NCBI RefSeq assembly: GCF_025698545.1
Contig: NC_068569.1
Span: forward strand, 16,802,001-16,866,000
DNA length: 64,000 nucleotides
Reading direction: 5' to 3'
DNA from: Gossypium raimondii
Lineage: Eukaryota > Streptophyta > Magnoliopsida > Malvales > Malvaceae
Of this stretch, positions 14,484 through 64,000 are shown piece by piece (the first letter of the stretch is position 1; every line of letters starts with the position of its first letter). Both the position numbers and the translations under genes were made by a program. The notes beneath the pieces are model-generated. The model was given only the letters and a program-made list of their open reading frames with translations, did no database searches and was not told the DNA's origin.

Positions 14484-17107
14484 TGTGATAGCCCGAAATA
14501 GGGCCTAATCGGAATAGTGGTTTCGTAACCATAAATCCGAAGTGAAATAGTTTAATTTTATAAATTTTTATTAGTTACTGATTGATTGAAATATTGTGTG
14601 AAAATATGGATAGAAAATTTTAATGATTTAGTGCCTAATTGAATTTTTAGGACTAAATCGAGAAAAATGCAAAGTGTGTCTAATTAGTGATTAAATGACT
14701 TAATTGAATTATTGCATGAAATTGGAAGTGTTTATGTGGCAATTAGACCATAAATTAGTGTTATGGACACAAAAGGGTATTTCTAGAAAAATATCTAAGT
14801 AATGGGTCAAGGGCATTTTTGTCCAAATTGGGAAAAAGACAAAATAAAGAGAAAATAAGTGTCCATCTTCTTCAAAATCAGAAGCTTGCTGCCGAAAGTT
14901 TCATGTTACCATAGCTAAGGTTCTTGATTTTTCTAAGCTCAATTGTAAGTGATTTCTTGCCCCGTTTTTAACTATTTTCGTATTTTTATGCTTATTGATG
15001 CTTGAATTTCATGTTTCTACTATTTAATTTAAATGAAATTAAAGTTTAAAAATTGACCCATTCATGATATAATTGTAAATTGATTAGTGATGTTAGATAA
15101 TGAATGTTTGAAGTGTTAATTACAAGTTTTACTAGATGAATTTTGATGAAAATGTTGAAAAAGGGCTAAATTGTGAAAGATGGTAAAGTGTGCATAAAGT
15201 TGTGATTTTGTGAAATTGAGGGCTGTTATGAGCATGAAATATGATTTAGTGAATTTTATTTTTACGAGCTTAGGGACAAAAGTGGAATTTTTGAAAAGTT
15301 TTGGGGAAAAATGTAAATTTGCCAAAATGTTGTGTATGAATTGTATTTGAATGAAATGTTGATAAAATGTATTAAATTGTGTTAATATAGATCAAGAAAG
15401 AAGAAATAGTGGAAGTGATCGGGGAAAAGAGAAAGTTATCGACTAAATTACAAAAATAGTCATTTTGCATCCGAGGTAAGTTACGTGTAAATAATAGTTA
15501 TATTTTTATAAATTGTGAATTATATTTGATATGTGAATTAATATTCAATGTGGAAGGAAAATTATTCATGAATTATTCAAGTGTTAAAGTGTTGAAAATA
15601 AAGTGTTAAGTGTAAATTCCGGTTGAACTTAGGAATAGAAGTGGATACAAGTGACATGTCACTAGAGATCGATGTTACAGATGTTACAGATGAGTCCCGG
15701 TCTTGGGTGATCTAGCATGTGTTGTAGACACTGACGACTTGTGTGAGCAGGCCCGTGGACATTTCGGTGTTATTGATCGGTGGTAGATTCGGCTACGTTT
15801 GGTGGTAGCTTGGCTACATAACATGGTAGCCGGCTACATTTCGATGGTAGCCGGCTACATAATAGTGGTAGCTTCGCTACATATCGTTGTTGCACTTATG
15901 TGCTAAATCTCTACGATCTCTGTATATTCCGAGTGTTCAACGGGATTAATAATGAGTTAAAGTGAATATGAAATGAAGTGTGTATGCAGGTACATTTGAA
16001 AAGAATGGGCATAGTGATAAAGATTAAGTGTGAAAATGTATATGCAAGTGAATTGGTAAGATTGTGCATGTATAAGTGATTGAAATTGCTAAGAAATGTT
16101 TTGATTAGTTATATGTTAAAAGTGTTAATTATTAAATGAGTAATTATTATTTACATGTAACTTACTAAGCTATTAGTAGTTTACGCCTTTCTTCTTTTCC
16201 TTTGTTTTATAGTGATTTGAACTTGGTCGAATTGGAGATCGTCGGAGCTCATATCACACTATCATAATCATCTCGGTATTATGTGCTTTTCAGAATGTTT
16301 AAAACTATGGCATGTATAGAGTCTTAATCATTTTGAGCATGTTCAAATGATATGGCTAAGATTAGCTATTGAAATAGTTAGTAAAAATTATGTTTTGGGT
16401 GTTATGTATGTTAAATAGTAACTAATTCAAAGAAGCAGTTTCTTTGACAGCAGTAGTGACGTGAATGTTAAAATTCACCATAAATAGTAGAAATGGAATT
16501 AGAGAGTGAATTATATATGGAATTAAATCTTATCAAGTCTATTTTTATATGAAAGAAACGGTGTAGGCAAAGGAATTCTGTATTTTGATATATTTTAATT
16601 TTAGTGAGACAGGGTCAGAATGGTTTTTGAAGTCCCCTGTTCTGACTTTGGAAAATCATTATAAATTGTACAGGAATAATTATGGGTAATAATTTATATT
16701 TCTAGATTCCTTAGTGAGTCTATTTTCAAAAGAAATAAACGGTAACCTTATATGAATTCTGTACAATGAGATAATTGATTTTTAGTGGCAAGAGGTCAGA
16801 TCTGTCGAGCTGTGAAACAGGGGATACTTTAATGAATAAACTTTACTAATTGGATAAGTAAAAAATTCTGAAAATTATATGGTAAGTAGGAATATGAGTC
16901 TAGTTTCAGGGAAAATTTACGGATTTAAATTTTGAGTTTCGTAACTTGAGTTATAAGTAAATTAGTGACAGTCGCGCAGGTGGACAGTTTTGTTGTAAAC
17001 AGTGAATTTAATTTTAAAAGCAAATTTTTATGCTCTGAATTGGTAGTTTAAATTGGATAACATCTCGTACTCGATTCCGGCGACGGTCTCGGGTAAGGGG
17101 TGTTACA
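14484..17107 (+). mobile_element. Solo LTR of a retrotransposon, 2624 bp (fossil)
   Basis: The element starts TGTGATAGCCCG and ends GGGGTGTTACA, giving TG...CA termini. It is flanked on both sides by the 5-bp target duplication ATTAT (14479-14483 and 17108-17112). No gag or pol coding sequence and no second LTR are present, so it is a solo LTR left by recombination between two LTRs. End motifs and size suggest a Ty3/gypsy element of the kind abundant in Malvaceae. Orientation is given relative to the other LTRs in this window. It holds the hairpin array at 15783-15880. Confidence 0.8.
15783..15880. repeat. Five-unit hairpin array in the LTR, 21-22 bp period
   Basis: Units begin at 15783, 15805, 15826, 15847 and 15868. 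Each contains GTAG...CTAC dyads: GTAGATTCGGCTAC, GTAGCTTGGCTAC, GTAGCCGGCTAC (twice) and GTAGCTTCGCTAC. The stems are kept while the loop bases vary. The array sits at the midpoint of the LTR. Confidence 0.9.
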
Positions 17108-23728: not shown

Positions 23729-26297
<2,569 letters not shown>

Positions 26298-44808: not shown

Positions 44809-46412
44809 TCAACTCTGAGAACTGCCATTACTGTTTCCAAACCTTCTCAGAGTACAAGCCACTAAACTCATCCCACTCAAAAGCCCCAACAACTTATGCG
44901 ATGTGGATCGGCCAGTGCTGCTGGAAGCAATACTAGGGGCACCAATTTGACTGGCTACCATTGGAGGAAATTCGACTCCATTATCTTGTGCACCACCACC
45001 ATCACTGGCACTTGCATCCAACTGTTCCCCTGTATCCAAATTAATTACGAGTGATCCTCTATTCGTTCTTAACCATTCCACCCCCTCCGAAGTTACTCCT
45101 CTACATTTCTTCACCTTCACTTTAACCAAATTCGGGCAACCACTAGCTAGGGCTTCCATTCCTTGGTCTGATACAGGGCAACTCTTAATACAAAGCTTCT
45201 TTAAAGCTATGCATTTCAAAGCAATACAAGATATCTCTGCATCACCAACTGTATCACTACCGCATAAAGCTAACCGTTCTAGATTCTGACAATTCGAAGC
45301 TAACATTTCCAAACTTATTTTCGTCGGATTAACACCAATAAGAACTAATTCTTGTAAATTAAGGCAACATTTCGCGACAGCAATTAATCCTTGGTCACCT
45401 ATTCGATTGGCCTTCCATCCATCAATGTGAAGCTTCCTCAACAATCTACATTTCTCAGCAACAGATCCAAGTCCGACGTTCGTGCACTCTGGAGTCTTAA
45501 CGAGGTGAAGAATTTCTAGGTTTAAACAATTGGAAATTGCCGTGAGACCTATGTCGCTTACTTGGATACGTTCCATGTGAATTTCTACTATACCCGTGAC
45601 CCGATCCACTATAAGAGGAAAAAGCTTATCCCAATCACCAGAGCACCTAAAAAGTTTTAAGGATCTCAGATTCTTAGCACCAACAATAAGCGGACCAAAG
45701 CACTGTCCATTGTAAAGCTCTTTTAAGCAAATTGATTTCAACGATGCCGCCGCCACCCCTGGTCCTATCGGCTCAGCTGCAGCTCCGTCGGTGATGCCAC
45801 GAAGTCGTTTCACGGAGAGTTCCTCGAGAGCTGGACAGTAGTCGAGCACGGCGTTCATGCCTTTAGCTCCGAAAGTGCAAGATCCACACGAGAGTTTCTT
45901 TAGACACTTGCAGTTTTTAGCGAACGCCAACATCCCTGCATCGGTTAAGTCACGACATGCTCGGAGCTTAAGACGAGTCAAGTTCCTGCAGTGCTCCGAG
46001 ATTTGAGCAAGCGCTTCGTCGCCAATGCTAACAGATCTACGGTCGCATTTCAGGGCCAGTTTCGTGACAGCATCGAAGCGAGAGAAGATGGAAGGAATGT
46101 GAGGGTGCAGATCTGATTGGGCGTTGAGGAGAGTCGGTGACGGCTCTGTCCTTCAATCCTCAACCACCGCCGGCAAACAAGAGAACACCGTTTCCGGTCA
46201 CCAGGAGTAAGAGACTGGAAAATGCAAGCCAAACACTCGTCGGGTAGAACCGAGATGATATCCGATAACCCATCAATGCTATTTCGTTCAACCTCTTCCG
46301 CTTCCTCAGCCTGCATCTGACCGATCAGAGCCGTTGATTTCGACTTTGAACGTTGGCTACGGTTACAATCCCGACGGCTCGTGAGTTTGGCCGTCGAAAC
46401 TGATTGGCCCAT
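44809..46412 (-). CDS. SKIP2: F-box/LRR protein, SKIP2/VFB type (one-base frame break)
   Basis: This is a single-exon gene. Allowing for one missing base, the product is about 534 residues; Arabidopsis SKIP2 (At5g67250) has 527. It starts MGQSVSTAKL, like the family, with Gly2 suitable for N-myristoylation. An F-box (LPDECLACIFQSLTPGDRKR, then CSLVCRRWLRIEGQ) is followed by leucine-rich repeats (LTRLKLRACRDLTDAGM, LRKLHIDGWKANRIGDQGL, LQELVLIGVNP, LERLALCGSDTVGDAEI). Such proteins are substrate receptors of SCF ubiquitin ligases; the VFB group acts in auxin-related growth and light responses. Near 46126-46130 one base is missing from a GAGG(G)AGAG run, just after the F-box. The frame before it carries the F-box and the next frame the LRRs, both open and well conserved. 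This is a recent lesion or a consensus error. Confidence 0.9.
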
Positions 46413-47299
46413 CAACAACAACAACAAATAAGTAAACCCTAAAGAAGCAAAAGATTAAGAGACAGGCGGAGGGTTAGTATCCTGGGAGAAACCGTAGAGG
46501 ACCAAGGACCATGTTTCAGGCTCTGCATCTGTTTTGTTCTCCTTGGAAACGACCAGACCAACGGACTTGAAAATGGGATTTCATTTGGCTTTTTGTGTGA
46601 GCTTTGGCTGGCCTTGTCTTTCTTTTTGAACCAAATAGCCCTTCCCTATCCTATTCCTACCCTCCACTCTTAGGTTTCTATACGCCTTTCCCATCCGCAT
46701 AATAAATACTTTTCTTGAGCCCCACCCCTGATTTTGGGGTCAAACAAAATCAAAAGATGATGATCAACGGTAGAAAACAAGTTGGAAGGGTGAGGTTGGG
46801 CACGGGTGATGCTTCCTTACTCTAAAAACAATTGATCAGTGGTAATGTATTGGGATTGGGGCACAAATCTTAGTGAAGAGAAAATAATAATCTTTGAACC
46901 ACCATGCTCCTCTTTTTAATTATTGTCGTAAAGATTTCGCGAATCTTCAAAAGCTTCTATTAATCTTCTTCACGTGTACTTCATTTTGTTCACATTTTAG
47001 TATCAATAATTCATTATAGGATGATTGCTCAACCATTCATTTATTTTTGTTTAATTTTAATCCTAAATACATCTTGTTTCGAAAACTAATCAATTATTTG
47101 ATTTTCAAATTCAAATTTCCAAGTCCCAATTTTCGAGTTAAAGCCGACACATGGCCTTGCCCAAAGTTCAAATGCAATTAAATCTTTTCATCTATTAATA
47201 TTTTGCAACTCAGACACTCTATTTTTATGTTTTTTTCAGTTTGGTTATTCTAACCTTAACAATAGTTGACTATACACCTCAATTTATGTCTACACTCTT
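46413..47299. promoter_or_regulatory. Upstream region of the F-box gene
   Basis: Presumed 5' UTR and promoter. No individual element stands out strongly enough to call. Confidence 0.4.
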
Positions 47300-49348: not shown

Positions 49349-50458
49349 TGTAACGCCCCTAACCCGAATCCGTCGTCGGAACAAGGTTACGGAGCACTAC
49401 CGGAGTTTACAAATTAATTATCAAACATTTCATTTCATCTAGCATTCATATTTGAAACCAATCAAAATCAAAACATTAATGAGCCATCGTTGGCCAATTT
49501 AACTTATACATGCCATTATAACCAGAATCAAATCATCCAAAATTACTGATAGAACCAATGGATAGTGTGATATATCTCCGACAAGCTTCTAACCCAATCG
49601 AGCTTCCAATAATCTAAAAAGTAAAGAAAAACAAATACGTAAGCAATAAATGCTTAGTAAGCTCGTATAAGCTTTAATCAGGTCCATTCATTTCAAATAT
49701 GAAATTCATAAATATCAATAATAATTTAATATTGATACCACAATACTCATGTGGCTATATTCATCAACTCACAAGGTAAATAAATCCACATCATCATTTG
49801 TACATATTATCCCTAGCATAATAGGATTTTAAACAACTTTATACTCTTCCAATTTCTTTATTTTCACTTGCATTTATTTACTTTCTACACTCATTCCATA
49901 TGCATTTAAACATAGTCTTTTTTCGAATTAATCATATAATAAGTCTTTTCATAAGAAACTACATAACTTTAAACTTACCACTCTTTCATGAACACAAGCA
50001 TATTTTCATTTGAGCACTTACCATTTCAACCAATAGCTTGGCATTTGCCTAAGCATCAAACAACAACACTTGTTAGCGTACTTAAACATATTTTATATAA
50101 TTTCAACATCGATAACCTTACTATCTCAACATGTTACACTTGAATTTATTACTTGTCTCCACTTACATAATTTCCATATACCAACATATCAAGATATTGA
50201 TATAAATACATATCATAATACATATCATTATCTTACCATTTCTTCATATACATATATATATATCATTCAAGACAACTCCCGATATTTTACCTTTCGAAGA
50301 ACGACTTACGGATATGAGTACATCGTTTTCAAAAGCCCGAAGGCTGAACAGAAGCTCATGAGATCTAAATAGATAGTAAACACGAAAGTCTGCAACAAAT
50401 TCTGAACCTTAGTTTACTTGGGTAATTTGCCGTCAATTAATCCTTTACATTCGTAGTG

Positions 50459-50677
50459 CCATAATCCAGTTATGGTGTTATCATCAAAATGCCATAGCCC
50501 ATCTATGGTCTTATATATAAACACTGCCATGGTCTAACCATGGTCTTACGTTCATAGTGCCATAACCCAGTTATGGTCTTATCATCAGAATGCCATAGCC
50601 CAGCTATGGTCTTACATATAAACACCGTCATGGTTCAATCATGGTCTTACGTTCATAGTGTCATAACCTAGTTATGG
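50459..50677. repeat. 101-bp higher-order hairpin array in the LTR
   Basis: Seven hairpins start at 50459, 50492, 50527, 50560, 50593, 50628 and 50661: CCATAATCCAGTTATGG, CCATAGCCCATCTATGG, CCATGGTCTAACCATGG, CCATAACCCAGTTATGG, CCATAGCCCAGCTATGG, TCATGGTTCAATCATGG, TCATAACCTAGTTATGG. Three stem types (AAC/GTT, AGC/GCT, GGT/ACC) rotate in fixed order with 33/35/33 spacing, so the order repeats every 101 bp. Spacers are also type-specific. Confidence 0.95.
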
Positions 50678-51803
50678 TCTTATCCGTCAATTTATCCTTT
50701 GGCACAGAATGATTGTACTCAATCCCGCATTCAATCTAAACTGAGTATTAAATTCGATAATATATTTCCAATAATAATTCAATTCCAACAATATAACACA
50801 CACATATATATATATAATATCCATCACCAAATAACATTCACTTTAATTAAAATTATACAGAGTATGGTTCATACGAACTTACCTGGCTAAATTGTAGCAA
50901 TACCAATATACATGGGCATTGTGGTATTTTTCTATTTTCCTCGAATTTTCACCCGATCTTGATCTAGATTAATAATTTCATTCAATTTATTAATTTAGAC
51001 AATAAAAAAATTTATTTCCTGTAATTTGGTCATTTTTGATATTTTTACTAAATTGCCCCTAAAATTTTACTTTTATTCAATTTAGTCCCTGAGCCCAAAT
51101 CATGCAAATTAACCATTTTTAATTCAAACCCATGCTAGAAGAATATTCATGGCATTCAATACAGCCCAATTTTGCAATAATTTCACAATAAACCCTTGTA
51201 TTTTTACTATTTCAACAATTTAGTCCTTAATTGGGAAATTCATCAAAATCACTTAATAAAATACTTTTAATTAACAACTAATATCTCAAATTCATCATTT
51301 AACATCAAGAATCATATATATTCATCAATGGTAACATTCAAAAATTTTAACAAAATAAAAAAAAAGGTAAAATTTGGTTGAATTTAATTGTCACAATCTC
51401 AAAACATAAAAATTATTGAAAACATAGCTAAATTTAACTTACATGTAAAGGAATAAAGCCAAAACAGAAACCTCCCCATGGCTATGGTGTTCGCTGGAAT
51501 GTTGGAGAAGAAATGAAATAAAAATGTTTTACTTTCTCTTTTATTTATGTTAATTTCCATTTAATTACAAAATTGCCATTGGTTTTATATTATTTTATCA
51601 TTTCCATTCAAGTTGCCATCCAACTATTTTATTTTAGGTATATTTACCACCTAATCCTTCTTTATTTATTAATCATGCCATTTAATCACTCAATTATTAT
51701 AATTAGCAAATTTTGTATTATTTTCAATTTAATCCTTTTAAATAATTAACTATTAAAATGTTAAAATTTTTCAACAAAATTTTACTACCACCTTATTGAC
51801 ACT

Positions 51804-57648: not shown

Positions 57649-59505
57649 AATGTGAAAACATAATGTTAATAGCGGTGTGTGAGTACGGTTTTGGTGTCAC
57701 TGGAGATGTTTTAAGATTTCATTTGAGTAGAGACATTGTGAATTTGTATTAGCGACTTATATAAGCCTTGAATTATAGTTGTCAATGTAGTAGATGATCC
57801 TTGACTGACGCCTCATGTTCGTTGTAAATGAGGACAAAGAAAATGATTATTTTGTAAGAAGCATTTCTTGAGATCCTCAGGTATTGGCTGTTATATAACG
57901 TTACTAGGATTTTCGAAGTGCTTTATTGTACGTCTGGAATTTGTCTCAAGAGCTTGTTAGACGGTTTAATCCCTTTCCAAGAACTTTGCGGTATCTTGAT
58001 TCTTGATATTAAAGACGTAGACGTAGAGTACATGTTAGAAGAAAATTGCTTCAACGTTCCTGCTAGTTTTTCTTACACTGATGTGAAATAAATCCCATCT
58101 TTGGTGGTTGATGAAAGTGATGAATTTGTTTTCATCTTCACAATGTCTGATGGATTGCATCAAATGGTAACAAGGGTCTTTTACTATCGCTGCTCAGTAT
58201 GTTTGGCATAATAGAAGAGAGTTAAAACAACCTTGAATCACCTCACTGGTGGTAGAGATAAATGACCGACTTTAGATGGGGAGCACTTAGCGCGGTTGGC
58301 CTTAAGCTTTATGGCAATGGAGGTCACTGCTTGCAACCAGAACGTTTCCACCTCCTAGGATTCGGATTTGAAGTTGGGATTTCGACAACTAGTTACCATC
58401 AACAATTAAAAGCAGGTGCAAGCTATGGTTTGAATCGTGATTAAGGGATCAAAGTGATGATTAGATTTAGACAGGCTACCCTATGGCCGCTGGATGGAGA
58501 AAATCCACATGGGTTCTTGCTTACCTATTATAGTGTTTTCATGGTACATATGGGAGCACAATCATATGTGCTAAACACTCGAGTCAAGGAAGAGAGATGA
58601 TGGAACATCTTCTTTCTATTAAAAGCCCCTGAATATTTTTGTGATCCAATTAGCTGGCTTGCGCTTACACAGAAGGTTTGGTGGTGGCCTTAAAGGCTGC
58701 AAGCTATTGGGTTTCATGAGTCCCAATAAAGGGAAGTCTTTGCTTTCTGTGGTGTATGATTTGAGTGAGATGGCAGAACAACTCAAGCCATACTTTGTGA
58801 TTCCCAAGTTGGTGCGGCCGTGTCCGACTTTGACCAGGCTTCCCTACTTACTTTAACCCTCTGTTTTTGTTTTTAGGATTTTTCAGAGGAAATTAATACT
58901 ATATGTAAAATAGACTATAAATATGAAAGAAATAAATTTCAAAACTCCACGGAATTATGAAGCTTGATTTCTCACATTTGTGAATGTGAATTCTGGATTT
59001 GATTCAATATTAACACTATTTTATGTTTACATATCTTATTCATAGATAATTATCTTTATTTAACATGAGATTATTTTTGAAATGCTGAATCAAATAAAAG
59101 TTTATGCATAATTGAGTTAAATTAAAGTTGCATGTATCACACTGAGTCTTAGTTCATAACATTTTATACTTTCCAAAGAAAAATCAAATAAAGTTTTTAT
59201 TCAAGTAAACTTGTAGATAAGTTTACAACTTATTATTTCTAGTGGGTTATTGGGATTTCATACTTTTATATAAATAGAGTATTCCTTTTAGATTTTATAT
59301 TCATCCAACTCAAGACATACGCTACTTTTTTCAGATTTCTTCTTAAACTTTTATTCAGTTTAAGTTCTACTCTCTAAGTTATGTCTAAATTTAATTTGAT
59401 TTGCGTTCAAATATATTCTAGTTTTTGATGAGTTTTCTTCAATTCTAATTTGTTTTAACCTCACATGTGTGGGCATGTTATGTTCTAATTTATTCTAACG
59501 TTCAG
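57649..59505. other. 3' flank of the DCL-type gene and intergenic DNA
   Basis: The 3' UTR is on the left. A less AT-rich patch at 58260-58860 has short open stretches but no recognisable protein. At about 59270 a TATAAATAGAGTATTCCTTTT phrase (approximate) resembles one at about 3500 (TATAAATAGAAGTATTCCTTT), suggesting two old copies of the same promoter-bearing repeat. Confidence 0.35.
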
Positions 59506-59682
59506 TGTAACAACCCAATTTTTAGTGGTGTCGGAAATAGTAGTTCGAGACCACTTGAGTTAAAAAATTTTATTATTTCGCAATTATGATTTAAATGTGA
59601 TTTTAGAAAGATTTATGAAATAGTGATTTGAGTTTAGAAGGAATTATTAAGTTAAATGGTTTTAAAAACAGGGTATCGAGAC

Positions 59683-59729
59683 CTCGATTTTATAAATCGA
59701 GCCGTAAATATTTTTATAAATATTTACGG
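59683..59729. repeat. Paired hairpins near the LTR start
   Basis: CTCGATTTTATAAATCGAG (59683-59701) is followed directly by the dyad CCGTAAATATTT...AAATATTTACGG (59702-59729), a perfect 12-bp stem. The same pair occurs in mirror order at 51804-51850. Confidence 0.9.
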
Positions 59730-60806
59730 AGTGTCATTGAGTTAGTATTAAAGTTTTTTCGGAAAATTTTAACGTTTTGATAGTTAATTAATTAAAAAGG
59801 ACTAATTTGAAAAAGGTGCAAAACTTGTTAAAGTGATTAAATAGCATAAATGGTAAATAAGGGAGGACTAAAAGGGATATTAGACACCCAAGGAATGGCT
59901 GAGGCGGCATAAGCAGAAAAAAATCTTGGAATTAGGTGATTTAAGGGTAAAATTGTAAATTTTGTGAAATTAAGCTTAAATAAAAAGAAATCTAAATATT
60001 TCTAGGCAATTCTTCTTCAATTCTCAGCCAAAAACAGCCATTAGATAGGTTCTCAAGCTGGGTTTTATATTTTTACTTCATGTAAGTTTAATTATTGTTT
60101 TTCTCTTGAAATTTTTATGTTTTTGAGACTTTCATTAGTTTTTAATTTTATGGGTAATTTTGAAAGTTACCATGGATGAGTGCTGGATGTTTATGATGAC
60201 TTAACATGGAATGGAAGCTTTAATTTTGTTATATGATGATTTTATCAAGTGATTTCAATAGAAATTGATTTTAGGACTAAATTGTGAAGAACTGAAGAAT
60301 TAGGGTTTGCTATTAAATTTCTATGTATAAAAGGCTGTAAAATAGCCTAAAATAATTAGATAAATTGTCAATTGAGAAAAATTAGCTCAATCGACAGGAT
60401 AATTGGTGAGGGACTAAATTATATAAATTATAAAAGTTGGAGTAATTGTGTAATTGCAAAATTTTAAGGGTATAAATTATGAAGTCGACTTAAATTGAAA
60501 TATATGCTAATGAATGAAAAATTTTACATTCTAGATCAAGAGCTTGTAGATCAACGAGAAGAAGGGAAATTAGCCGAGTAGTCTCTGAACTATTACCAAT
60601 TTTATAATCCAACCCAGGTAAGTTCATATGGTTAAACTTTCATGATTATGTGTTAATTTAGGAATGACATAATATATTTATTTATATTTTGTTGTTGAAA
60701 CTAAGATTATTGTAAAAGTATAAAAATTGAATTGAATGTTTAAAATGAGTAAAACGCAGGATTGAGTACGATCGTTCCGTGGCAAAGAATGAATTGATGG
60801 ATAAGA

Positions 60807-61058
60807 CCATGGTTGGACCATGGCAATGTTTAAATGTACGGCCATAGTTGGGCTATGGCATTTTAATGAAAAGATCATAACTAAGTTATGGCACCTTGAG
60901 CATAAGACCATGGTTGGACCATGACAATATATATATGTAAGACCATAGCTGAGCTATGACATTCTAATGATAAGACCATAATTAGGTTATGACACTACAA
61001 ATGTAAGACCATGACAGGGACATGGCAATGCATGTGTAAGACTATAGTTGGACTATGG
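60807..61058. repeat. 101-bp higher-order hairpin array in the LTR
   Basis: Eight hairpins start at 60807, 60842, 60875, 60908, 60943, 60976, 61009 and 61042. Examples are CCATGGTTGGACCATGG, CCATAGTTGGGCTATGG, TCATAACTAAGTTATGG and CCATAGCTGAGCTATGA. The stem types cycle GGT, AG(T/C), AA(C/T), with 35/33/33 spacing, so the first type recurs at exactly 101 bp (60807, 60908, 61009). Confidence 0.95.
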
Positions 61059-61709
61059 CACAAAAAGAACGATGTACTCATATCCCTAAGCCATTCTTCG
61101 ATTCAGAAAGAAATAGTAAAAGACTTATGTGATTGAATTGAAATATTTATAGATTATTATTGATATTGATCTGAAGGAAGTGTGTTTATTGATTATATTA
61201 TAATTGACAGGGGAAAATGTATGATTTATTTACAATTTAATTTATTATATTAAGTTCGGTAAGATCAATGTTTAACCTATTGAACTTACTAAGCTTCATT
61301 AAGCTTACTCGTGTTGTTTAATGTTTTTGTAGATTAACGTGTAATCGGGAGATCAGATCAACACATCAAGTTACACTATCCAGTTTAATCTGGTAGTTTT
61401 TGCAATGTAAATTTTGGTTTATTTGGCATGTATAGGATTGGTTTGGCAATGAAATAGTTTGAATTGTGGCTGTGAATCTAAAATGTTTGTATGTATGTAA
61501 TTAGTAGTAGAATTTGATAAATCAATGAAATGAGTTAAATGGGTAAGAATAAGTAATTGAAATATTTGTGATGTTATGTTATGTGGAGAACACGTTTTAG
61601 CTTGAATTGACTGTTTGGTTGGGATATATTGGTGTATGTGATTATTGAGTGCAGATTGATGTCAAAATAGGTGAGAAAAGTGGCATTAAAACGACCTATT
61701 TTCGTCCAC

Positions 61710-62045
61710 ACGGGCAAAGACGCGGGAGTGTGTCTTAGCCGTGTGTGACACACGGCCTAACACATGGGCATGTGACTTGGCTGTGTGTCCCCTGTACCTT
61801 AAAATTTCAAACAAAATGCCCAGGTTTTTACACACAGCCTAGCACACTGGCGTGTGACTTGGCCGTGTGACCCTTGCACCTTGCACATGGCCTAGCACAT
61901 GGGCGTGTGTTTGGCCGTGTGACCCAAGTCAAAGAGTTACACAGGTAAGGACACGAGCTAGGACACGGCCGTGTGCCTCATATCGAATGCCCACACGGCC
62001 TAAGACATCAGCGTGTCACACGGCCGGTCACACGGGCGTGTGTCC
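61710..62045. repeat. CACACGG / CCGTGTG dyad-rich array
   Basis: Words such as CACACGGCC, GGCCGTGTG and GGGCGTGTG recur about every 20-40 bp in both orientations, separated by phrases like TAGCACATGGGCGTGTG. It is much GC-richer than the rest of the LTR. It has the look of an expanded minisatellite; period is irregular. Confidence 0.8.
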
Positions 62046-62285
62046 CTTGCTTCTAAGAAAATTTTTGAGATTTTGGGAAAAATTTCCTGAGTACCTGGTT
62101 TAGTCCGATTTACTTCTAAGGTGAATATTGGGTCTCGAGGGTCTATTTAAAGGACAATATGAGTGTTATATGATTGATTCTTAATACGTGTAACAAAGGT
62201 TGTGAAACAAGCGTATTTAATTCATAAAGTTTGGTAATGCTCTATAACCCTGTTCCCGTGACGGATAAGGGTTTGGGGTGTTACA

Positions 62286-64000
62286 TTCAGTCTATTTGTA
62301 TGTTGTAATAACTTAATTCTGATTATAATTATTTAAATATGTATTATTTGTGATTATACTTTGCTTACTTTGAATTTTAGTGAATCTTTTAAGTTATTTT
62401 GGATATCTTATCATTTTTATGAAAATTTCATGGTCAATTTATAGATTTTAAAATTTTTAATATAGTATTTGGTATTTGAGTTTGGGTTCAAGGTTCAATG
62501 TTTAATTTGACACATATGCTCGATAAAAAATATTTATACTTAATTGAGACGAAAAAATAAATATAAAATTAAACATCGAAATAAAACTCAATTAGACTTC
62601 ATGTACCAAATTAAATATTAAAGCTACATTAAAGTAGGTTAAGATCGACATAAAATTTATTGAATTTTAGTATTCTCATATAAAGGTGTAACTAAGTCTG
62701 ATTAGTGAAGAAGCATAACATCGACTCACATATTTAAACAAATTAAACTGATAATCGCATTTAGTTATGAACATATATATTATTTTGATGTTAAATCATG
62801 GCATTGCCTCTGTATGATGGTTTCAGCATTATAGGTAATATCAATTTATGCGGTGGAGACCAAAGACACCCACCACTGCTATCTACCATTTCCGTTCACA
62901 TCCTCCATTGATTTTCGTAGAATGGTATAAGAATTTACCAAAAAATTACATATATAAAAGATAGACCAATTATCATAGCCTCTCCCTCTCTCTCTCTCTC
63001 TCCTGCTTGCACTAAACACACACCGATCTTTCTTTTTTGCTTGCTGTCCTCTCAATAGCTTCATTTATAGGGGATCGAGCCCGTAAAGAAGGAAAGTGAG
63101 GGTGTAGTAGGAGTAAAAGCGAAGCAAAGAAAGCAACGCATCAAGCCCCAACATCCTACACGCGTCCTCACCTATACCCCCACAGTGCGATACATTTTTT
63201 GCGATTAGCCATTTTCATTTCATTTACCGCACCTTCCATTTTGCATGGCTGAAAGGCAAGAAGTTTTTCTTTAAAAAAAGAATCTTGAAGTTGAAGACAA
63301 AAACAAAACGCAAGCAGGGTCTCTTCATTATTCTAGAATTAACCCACTGTTGGTACCCCCAAAACAAAAAACAAAAAAGGTAAAAAGGAATTGAGTTGTC
63401 GTGCTGGAGAGCAGTAAATTGCATGGGGAACTGTTCTGTGCTTTTAATTTCAAACTTTATTTTTTTTTGTGGATTTTCTCCAACCATGTATGTATGTATA
63501 TATATATACTCTGCATAGTAACTTTCACTTTACAATGGAGGCCGCATTAATCAGCCCAAAAGGAACACCCTACTTGGAGTTATATTAATTGGGTATAAAA
63601 CAGGGTACAAAATAAAAGCTCTTACACCCCTACCTAGAAAAACTTGTAGTAATGTGTAAAACAGCTAGAACCTACTTTAGAGTTTAGAGATACCCCAATT
63701 TATTTCAAGAATAAAACTGTGCTGTATGGTTAATGATAAGACAATGATTTATTTATATATTTATTTTCATGTTTGGAATTAGAAAACAACCCTTCATTCA
63801 ACCTTCAACTAGGGGACTTAATTTTTTATTCCTGAAGGAACTTTTAATCCTCCAATTGTTGATTTTTTAAAAAAATATTTTGTTCTACGGAACAAAACAG
63901 TATGACAGTGCAACCATAAATGATATTCCTCTATACATCTTTCCCAGAACCAGAGAAGTAAAGGAAGAAGATTAAGTAGTAAAAGATTGTTTAATTAATA
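62286..64000. other. Right-end intergenic DNA
   Basis: No gene is supported. A (CT)n microsatellite lies at 62986-63002. The patch 62880-63240 is less AT-rich and could be the 5' flank of a gene outside the window, but nothing in it is recognisable. Confidence 0.35.

What the first reader, a model, noticed from the sequence alone, without database searches (positions are those of the whole stretch)
60807..61058. Three-hairpin higher-order repeat with exact 101-bp period in an LTR
Seen directly: eight short dyads spaced 35/33/33 bp whose stems rotate among three types, so that the whole motif repeats at exactly 101 bp. When a stem base differs between types (GGT, AGC, AAC), the opposite arm differs to match (ACC, GCT, GTT). 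Paired change in both arms is what selection on a hairpin, or on a dyad-binding protein site, would leave. A plain minisatellite would not need it. The array lies near the middle of a 2.8 kb LTR, where promoter or transcript structure could matter.
Basis: partly seen in the sequence, partly recalled or inferred. Interest (0 to 1): 0.8.

Follow-up and report, generated by a model that had tools for sequence, protein, structure and literature searches.

The report
Hairpin array inside an LTR intron
A row of small RNA hairpins noticed in a plant jumping gene turns out to sit inside a removable segment (an intron) hidden in the element's own end repeats, and the ends of that segment can pair with each other, which suggests that the element controls how much of its RNA is spliced, somewhat as retroviruses do.

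Summary
The array is real: eight 7-bp dyads at 60807-61058, spacing 35/33/33/35/33/33/33, in a 2,780-bp solo LTR (59506-62285, TSD TTCAG) of a Ty3/gypsy, chromovirus-like family.

The main result goes beyond the finding. The array lies in an apparent spliceosomal intron inside the LTR: 60618-61332, CAG|GTAAGTT...TTTGTAG|ATTAACG. Six LTR copies (five insertions, three LTR families) lack exactly this interval at the predicted sites; two are the paired LTRs of one element with a PBS. Donor boundaries outnumber joined ones 371:2 and 203:1.

Across families the donor matches sequence just upstream of the acceptor (swap test), followed by a covarying hairpin module found 10,777 times (reversed pattern 1). 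Of 16 module loci read, 15 have a tandem array; 8 of 15 fold unusually stably.

In A and B, stem pairs 2-6 favour G-U-keeping changes (77:33), but the outermost pair goes the other way (26:104). Family C has one-arm changes against pairing, and compensation within families is almost absent. Function (control of splicing, perhaps packaging) is inferred; no RNA data.

The parts
59506..62285 (+). LTR of family A (TGTAACAACC...GTGTTACA, 2,780 bp), here a solo LTR
   Evidence: Ends and homology limits; same 5-bp TSD directly on both sides
59501..59505 (.). Target-site duplication TTCAG, left copy
62286..62290 (.). Target-site duplication TTCAG, right copy
60618..61332 (+). Intron (715 nt) inside the LTR; CAG|GTAAGTT ... 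TTTTTGTAG|ATTAACG
   Evidence: GTAAGTT donor in 8 of 8 long family-A copies; two LTR copies lack exactly this interval (L108, L109)
60618..60637 (+). P1 5' strand: donor site GTAAGTT plus family-specific extension
61270..61289 (+). P1 3' strand: complement of the donor region, ending AACTTAC, 43 nt before the acceptor
61290..61307 (+). P3 hairpin TAAGCTT CATT AAGCTTA directly after P1
   Evidence: Module pattern in 10,777 places; inner pair Watson-Crick in 43 of 51 distinct loops against 27.5 shuffled
61308..61332 (+). Pyrimidine-rich tract and acceptor TAG
60760..60776 (+). P2 5' strand, candidate stem enclosing the array
   Evidence: flank duplex z -2.1 in A, mixed over families
61068..61079 (+). 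P2 3' strand
60807..60823 (+). Dyad 1 CCATGGT TGG ACCATGG
60842..60858 (+). Dyad 2, family majority CCATAGC TGG GCTATGG
60875..60891 (+). Dyad 3, family majority CCATAAC TGG GTTATGG
60908..60924 (+). Dyad 4, family majority as dyad 1
60943..60959 (+). Dyad 5, family majority as dyad 2
60976..60992 (+). Dyad 6, family majority as dyad 3
61009..61025 (+). Dyad 7, family majority CCATGGC AGG GCCATGG
61042..61058 (+). Dyad 8, family majority CCATAGT TGG ACTATGG
49614..50882 (-). Family B: LTR intron of 1,269 nt (CAG|GTAAGTTCG ... TTTTTAG|ATTATTGG) holding the array at 50445-50684
   Evidence: one copy with the exons joined (L126)
50445..50684 (-). Family B array; majority order of types AAC, GGT, AGC, AAC, GGT, AGC, AAC, period 101
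15476..16212 (+). Family C: LTR intron of 737 nt (GAG|GTAAGTTACG ... TTTTATAG|TGATTTG)
   Evidence: L105-L107 lack exactly this interval
15476..15501 (+). Family C P1 5' strand (26 contiguous pairs, three of them wobbles, with 16140-16165)
16140..16165 (+). Family C P1 3' strand
16166..16183 (+). Family C P3 hairpin
15779..15884 (+). Family C array; stem GTAGC/GCTAC, unit about 21 bp

Best explanation
The array is part of a structured spliceosomal intron that lies wholly inside the transcribed (R-U5) part of the LTR of chromovirus-like Ty3/gypsy retrotransposons. Shown by sequence: the intron ends; base-exact loss of the interval in retrotransposed copies of three families; a family-specific complement of the donor site placed just before the acceptor (P1); a covarying hairpin (P3) right after it; tandem arrays, often of dyads, in the same interval, with unit sequences that differ between families. 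Inferred: in the RNA P1 hides the donor from U1 and brings both intron ends together, so only part of the transcripts is spliced. Unspliced RNA, which keeps the array, is what is normally reverse transcribed; spliced RNA, freed of the structured leader, would mainly serve as mRNA for Gag-Pol. The array would be the structural body of that switch: it compacts the intron and may mark unspliced RNA for packaging or dimerisation.
For: Junction-probe searches (40 best candidates scored in each) found copies in which exon 1 and exon 2 are joined exactly at the predicted GT...AG sites: A L108, L109; C L105, L106, L107; B L126. L105 and L107 are the two LTRs of one element: a PBS TGGTATCAGAGC follows the first, integrase-like sequence (read by eye) lies between them and no PBS follows the second, so a spliced RNA was reverse transcribed and the intron is in R-U5. 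Boundary counts with one mismatch allowed: C 371 unspliced, 2 joined; A 203 and 1. P1: in A, B, C and six other loci, donors taken by a rule blind to pairing, 61 of 81 extension pairs form, against 39.8 when partners are swapped (25 of 40,000 permutations reach it); with two near-duplicate loci kept, 75 of 99 against 51.1 (10 of 40,000). P3: 43 of 51 distinct loops close with a Watson-Crick pair, 27.5 by shuffling, 0 of 5,000 reach. Module CTTACTAAGC-N5-11-GCTTAC: 5,387 + 5,390 matches, 1 + 0 for the reversed pattern. Arrays: 15 of 16 module loci read have one, with unlike units; folding z is -4.2, -3.3 and -4.4 in A, B, C and -2.2 to -6.4 in 8 of 15 module loci, against -1.0 to +1.2 in 14 other arrays of the window. 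Wobble-keeping against mismatch-making changes at pairs 2-6: 77:33 in stems, 173:228 outside; pair 7 54:5, though there the sequence context is not mirror-matched.
Against: No RNA data were available: splicing is deduced from DNA copies, and its frequency in the plant is unknown. The wobble skew holds at pairs 2-7 only: pair 1, which is also mirror-matched, shows 26 wobble-keeping and 104 mismatch-making changes (all 15 sites hit), so pairs 1-6 together give 103:137 and all seven pairs 157:142. Leaving out pair 1 was decided after seeing the pair counts; one may read it as a 6-bp stem with an unimportant outer pair. The skew is not stronger in shared than in single changes, as selection on source elements would predict. 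In C a shared one-arm change breaks pairing. Seven of 15 module-locus arrays fold no better than shuffles (z -1.3 to +0.8), and several of the 15 are related to each other. P2 is clear in some families only. RNAalifold often pairs dyads of different repeats into a rod instead of eight separate hairpins, and P1 was not in the single-sequence MFE of the window's family-A intron. Seven of 15 module loci gave no usable donor under the blind rule. A subfamily with about 120-140 nt left between the exons is seen at 16 places by exon spacing; the three copies read lack array, P1 partner, P3 and acceptor, so the array is not indispensable. The scarcity of joined copies could also mean that the intron is rarely spliced.
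Confidence: 0.68

Rival explanations
1. The dyads are DNA sites for a dimeric protein or a chromatin feature, and lie in an intron by chance or as an intronic enhancer.
For: Perfect dyads; regular spacing; family C spacing of 21 bp is close to two helical turns. The wobble skew vanishes if the outermost pair is counted.
Against: At pairs 2-7 of A and B, stem changes are skewed towards G-U-keeping ones, which has no meaning for a DNA dyad. Unlike loci have unlike stem sequences in the same place, so no common binding motif. Spacings of 33 and 35 are not helical multiples (inference).
Confidence: 0.15
2. A neutral minisatellite: units spread by unequal exchange or template switching, and arms are kept complementary by hairpin-templated (quasi-palindrome) correction during reverse transcription or replication, without selection.
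For: Paired changes between units need no selection under this process. Compensation within families is almost absent, the wobble skew does not grow with allele sharing and is reversed at the outer pair, family C shows concerted one-arm change, and a lineage without the array has spread.
Against: Does not explain the wobble skew at pairs 2-7, nor why families with unlike units keep an array in this interval; cannot by itself explain P1, whose strands lie 565-1,105 nt apart in the 11 loci yet match within each family.
Confidence: 0.28
3. The array is mainly a packaging or dimerisation signal, placed in the intron so that only unspliced RNA carries it, and control of splicing is secondary.
For: Nearly all countable genomic copies come from unspliced RNA (371:2 and 203:1). 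The dyads are self-complementary, so two RNAs could pair through them.
Against: Joined and array-free copies did retrotranspose. No binding data. The ratio is explained as well by rare splicing.
Confidence: 0.25
4. The copies without the interval reflect an older LTR without intron, and the interval is an inserted sequence rather than an intron.
For: Only six such copies were found.
Against: They occur in three families. In C, the one family tested, the best intron-bearing relatives among 28 copies compared match exon 1 at 94.9-96.6% and exon 2 at 93.3-94.0%. Joins are exact at GT...AG behind a pyrimidine-rich tract, and only AG is shared between the two boundaries (read by eye), so no target duplication is seen.
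Confidence: 0.04

Closest known systems
Ogre (Ty3/gypsy, Tat) intron
   [quoted passage not shown] here the intron is wholly within the LTR, upstream of the coding region, and carries P1, P3 and a hairpin array
Retroviral leader splice donors and packaging signals (for example HTLV-1 donor in R, HIV-1 psi near the donor; recalled, no call)
   Same: Balance of unspliced genome and spliced mRNA; structured leader; donor in the LTR in some
   Different: Here donor and acceptor both lie in the LTR, so the LTR itself can lose the intron
Tandem repeats in plant LTR retrotransposons (Retand, Grande, 3' UTR repeats; titles in the reference list of PMC6317226)
   Same: Amplified tandem repeats inside the element
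   Different: By their titles and my recollection those lie in internal or UTR regions; here the units are often dyads, sit in an intron in the LTR, and recur there with unlike sequences
Plant genic introns with paired ends (recalled, no call)
   Same: Long-range pairing can bring intron ends together
   Different: Here the donor itself is matched by a family-specific partner at a nearly fixed distance (43-47 nt) from the acceptor in A, B and C

Membership tests
Spliceosomal (U2-type) intron | GT...AG ends with donor consensus and pyrimidine tract | tested here: met
Spliceosomal (U2-type) intron | Exact removal from RNA | tested here: met
   Indirectly: six DNA copies with exon joins at the predicted sites in three families; in L126 the last base of exon 1 differs from the probe; no RNA reads available
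LTR retrotransposon | TG...CA ends, target-site duplication, PBS and PPT | tested here: met
   Window copy: ends and TSD. Family-A element on C13: purine tract before the 3' LTR and PBS TGGTATCAGAGC after the 5' LTR end. PBS motif also in 5 of 30 family-C loci and in L130
Chromovirus (Ty3/gypsy) | RT and protease of retroelement type, integrase with chromodomain | tested here: inconclusive
   RVT_1 2.2e-19, RVP_2 9.4e-7 and SH3_Tf2-1 4.6e-17 found in pieces of one element; Chromo 6.5e-4, 20.0 bits, below its cut-off of 25.1
Tekay/Del clade | Place in an RT or integrase tree | not tested
   Name is recalled from LTR ends and general likeness; no tree was built
[quoted passage not shown]
   The intron lies within the LTR, before the PBS
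Plain minisatellite | Tandem repeats with no excess of secondary structure | tested here: not met
   A, B, C fold z -4.2, -3.3, -4.4 against -1.0 to +1.2 in 14 other arrays of the window; but 7 of 15 module-locus arrays do not stand out
Known structured RNA family (Rfam 15) | Covariance-model match | tested here: not met
   No match up to E = 1 in 59500-62300

The most novel reading that the evidence does not exclude
A very abundant group of plant chromovirus-like retrotransposons carries a retrovirus-like splice switch wholly inside its LTRs: the donor is masked by a helix with a U1-like partner strand next to the acceptor, and a rapidly changing hairpin array, kept only in unspliced RNA, marks that RNA as the genome to be packaged. 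The array's sequence turns over from family to family while its role is kept.
Probability: 0.3. Interest if true: 0.9.

Novelty: new variant of a known kind. Interest (0 to 1): 0.78.

Why it matters
The P1/P3 module occurs at more than ten thousand places in one plant genome. If most of them are introns in LTRs, as the few that were read suggest, these elements are a natural laboratory for how retroelements divide RNA between genome and message. It would explain a class of LTR tandem repeats, give a simple sequence signature (CTTACTAAGC-N5-11-GCTTAC) for annotating LTRs, and bear on how RNA structure controls access of U1 in plants. It also shows that LTR copies can lose the intron through spliced RNA, a built-in record of splicing in past activity.

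Tried and rejected
A promoter reading was tried: a TATA-like TATAAAAGG at about 60325 occurs in the window copy but in none of the seven other long family-A copies, so no start site is claimed. PBS and PPT motifs were sought in L001-L068; the PBS motif was found in 5 of 68, all family C; these loci reach only about 1,500 bases to each side of the array match. A compensatory-change test within families was run and is nearly empty. Shared against single changes did not separate. P2 was tested over 15 loci: z of -2.1 or lower in 5 of 15 (A, L110, L114, L115, L118), the rest -1.9 to +1.0. The first P1 swap test used donors chosen by best pairing in eight loci, which is biased; it was replaced, where the donor rule ignored pairing (7 of 15 loci gave no usable donor or array; L112 was left out as family C; L115 and L117 were dropped in one of two versions as near-duplicates). 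The 14 control arrays were picked by me from the window's list; shorter or overlapping ones were left out. Of 26 further module loci chosen for unlike P3 loops only 10 could be fetched. The short-intron subfamily was examined as a possible alternative donor; no counterpart of its left boundary was seen in the 30 family-B copies held, so that is open. Literature: searches; a phrase search for 'LTR intron' and variants found none. Passages were read in PMC7730604, PMC6317226, PMC3601003 and PMC12557855; no paper was read whole. The library is open-access only, so an earlier description elsewhere is possible.

Full report
Observation. Each has 7-nt arms and a 3-nt loop. The raw window copy forms 48 Watson-Crick pairs, 4 wobbles and 4 mismatches out of 56. 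The spacing is 35,33,33,35,33,33,33, so the period of 101 holds in four of five comparisons. In 40 genomic copies of the family (the 40 that the search scored out of 1,268 candidates of its first look) the majority state of every dyad is a perfect stem. Inner triplets are GGT/ACC, AGC/GCT, AAC/GTT, again the same three, then GGC/GCC and AGT/ACT. All 24 inner pairs match; 8 of 40,320 permutations of right triplets reach that, which is the number of swaps among identical dyads.

Setting. The window copy is a solo LTR, 59506-62285, flanked by TTCAG on both sides. A family-A element on another contig was sampled in pieces: a 5' LTR end followed by a PBS, a gag-like start read by eye, protease and RT with stop codons (L071), integrase SH3 and a sub-threshold chromodomain match ahead of a purine tract and the LTR start. 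The array is on the coding strand. The window holds two more LTR families with arrays: B at 50445-50684 on the minus strand with the same stems, and C at 15779-15884 with another stem, GTAGC/GCTAC. The genome has 750.8 Mb and 13 chromosome-size contigs among those met; that it is a cotton relative is my recollection of such numbers and not tested.

The intron. In all three families GTAAGTT stands a few hundred bases or less upstream of the array: 8 of 8 long A copies, 25 of 30 B copies, 30 of 30 C copies. Downstream a pyrimidine-rich tract ends in TAG. Probes joining the supposed exons were searched in the genome; 40 candidates were scored each time. In C three copies cover the whole probe at 89-91%; in A two span the join at 84 and 80%; in B one at 85%. 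Five of them, aligned, join without a gap at the predicted sites; L126 was read by eye, its last base of exon 1 differing from the probe. Two of the C copies are the LTRs of one element: the 5' LTR is followed by a PBS, an integrase-like stretch (by eye) lies between, and the 3' LTR end has no PBS. They differ at 15 of 408 aligned bases. A spliced RNA was therefore reverse transcribed, which puts the intron in R-U5 of the 5' LTR. Such copies are rare: with one mismatch allowed, donor boundaries number 371 in C and 203 in A, joined boundaries 2 and 1. Copies too worn for the patterns are missed on both sides; L107 and L109 are examples.

RNA architecture. P1: the donor and its following bases are complementary to a stretch ending in CTTAC, 43-47 nt before the acceptor in the window copies of A, B and C (counted). 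C has 26 contiguous pairs with three wobbles, B (L018) 17 with two wobbles, A nine, a gap of three, then eight. The extensions differ between families and, as a set, match their own partners better than swapped ones. With donors taken by a rule that ignores pairing, nine loci form 61 of 81 extension pairs against 39.8 when swapped (25 of 40,000); with two near-duplicates kept, 75 of 99 against 51.1 (10 of 40,000). L123 and L124 pair less well without gaps (5 and 3 of 9). In C the partner stands at the expected place with 11-13 of 14 bases matched in 30 of 30 copies; in A the best 14-base partner is at the expected place in 5 of 8. P3: directly after P1 comes TAAGC...GCTTA. The module pattern occurs 10,777 times against 1 for its reversal. 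Among the 100 places listed there are 51 distinct loops, 43 of which close with a Watson-Crick pair of either sense (TA 30, AT 13; shuffled 27.5, 0 of 5,000 reach); the second inner pair shows no clear excess (21 of 40, shuffled 17.1, 446 of 5,000 reach). P2: pre- and post-array flanks pair strongly in some families and not in others.

Arrays elsewhere. Sixteen module loci were read: six given by the search, ten chosen for unlike P3 loops without looking at arrays (26 were chosen, 16 could not be fetched). Fifteen have a tandem array upstream, in L119 800 nt away and in L121 637 nt away. Periods are 23-51 bp or multiples, 103 in L119. Read by eye, units carry dyads such as GTATGGT/ACCATAC, GAGC/GCTC, CCATGT/ACATGG and GATAAGTGGTAGCT/AGCTACACTTATC; not every unit has an evident one. 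Folding stands out in 8 of 15 (z -2.2 to -6.4) and not in 7 (-1.3 to +0.8); some of the 15 are related to each other. Fourteen other arrays of the window, picked by me, lie between -1.0 and +1.2.

RNA or DNA? In a dyad, C>T and A>G leave a G-U pair in RNA, while G>A and T>C leave A-C. Pairs 1-6 are mirror images, so sequence context is matched. At pairs 2-6 families A and B show 77 against 33 changes on 2,640 and 2,637 opportunities; outside the dyads (C and G limited to CHH context) 173 against 228 (odds ratio 3.1). Each of pairs 2 to 7 leans the same way (21:13, 11:0, 5:3, 15:7, 25:10, 54:5), pair 7 without matched context. Pair 1 goes strongly the other way, 26:104, so pairs 1-6 give 103:137 in cells and 55:38 in hit sites. 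Omitting pair 1 was a choice made after seeing the data. If the stem is really 6 bp the skew speaks for RNA; if not, it speaks for little. Cells are not independent, so the P value of 6e-7 is too small. The skew is not stronger among shared changes. In family C the common one-arm change GTAGC to GTAAC goes against pairing. RNAalifold offers a rod pairing arms of different repeats as a rival to separate hairpins.

Mechanism. Shown: an intron-like interval in the LTR, its exact loss through RNA, family-matched P1 and covarying P3, arrays with unlike units in the same interval. Inferred: P1 masks the donor and holds the intron ends together, leaving most RNA unspliced; unspliced RNA is the genome, spliced RNA the message; the array compacts the intron and may serve packaging or dimerisation. 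The scarcity of joined copies fits both selective use of unspliced RNA and simply rare splicing. A subfamily with 120-140 nt left between the exons is seen at 16 places by exon spacing; the three read lack array, P1 partner, P3 and acceptor, so none of these is strictly needed.

Against the literature. Plant LTR elements with introns are known, above all Ogre, where the intron is internal (passage of PMC6317226); spliced isoforms of sunflower elements were seen by nanopore (passages of PMC7730604). In the listings of eight searches and the passages read in four papers I saw no description of an intron inside an LTR of this group; the library is open access only. I therefore rate it a new variant of a known kind.

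Noticed in passing
L127, L128, L129 (family-B relatives): LTR copies in which only about 140 nt of the intron's donor side remain; the right boundary coincides with the first base of exon 2. Sixteen places show such exon spacing (120-140 nt). Possibly an alternatively spliced RNA that was retrotransposed and then multiplied.
   Followed up: partly
15779-15884 and L039-L068: In family C the change GTAGC to GTAAC on one arm is common in four of five dyads, perhaps by concerted evolution, and breaks pairing; spacing of 21 bp is close to two helical turns.
   Followed up: partly
60823, 60858, 60891 and equivalents (outermost stem pair): The outermost right-arm G is A in many copies of A and B (104 of 529 cells, all 15 sites), as if the outer pair were free or an alternative ending ATGA had its own use.
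   Followed up: partly
61284-61289 and equivalents: The P1 3' strand ends ACUUAC, the same letters as the donor-binding 5' end of U1 snRNA (recalled), so the intron carries a U1 mimic next to its acceptor.
   Followed up: no
60801-61063: Because dyads of one type recur at 101 nt, arms of different repeats can pair into a long rod; the same property would allow two RNAs to pair.
   Followed up: partly
G000:C5:22533202-22534006: Several overlapping family-B array matches in a row suggest an expanded array.
   Followed up: no
25265-25564: A 163-bp unit repeated 1.8 times at 99% identity, a recent duplication.
   Followed up: no
44809-46454 (-): F-box and FBD-type LRR coding pieces in overlapping frames, probably one host gene with an intron or a frameshift.
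   Followed up: no
L132: A further LTR with the same P1/P3 module lies beside the intron-less element on C2; its supposed acceptor reads TTTTGTAA, so it looks damaged.
   Followed up: no
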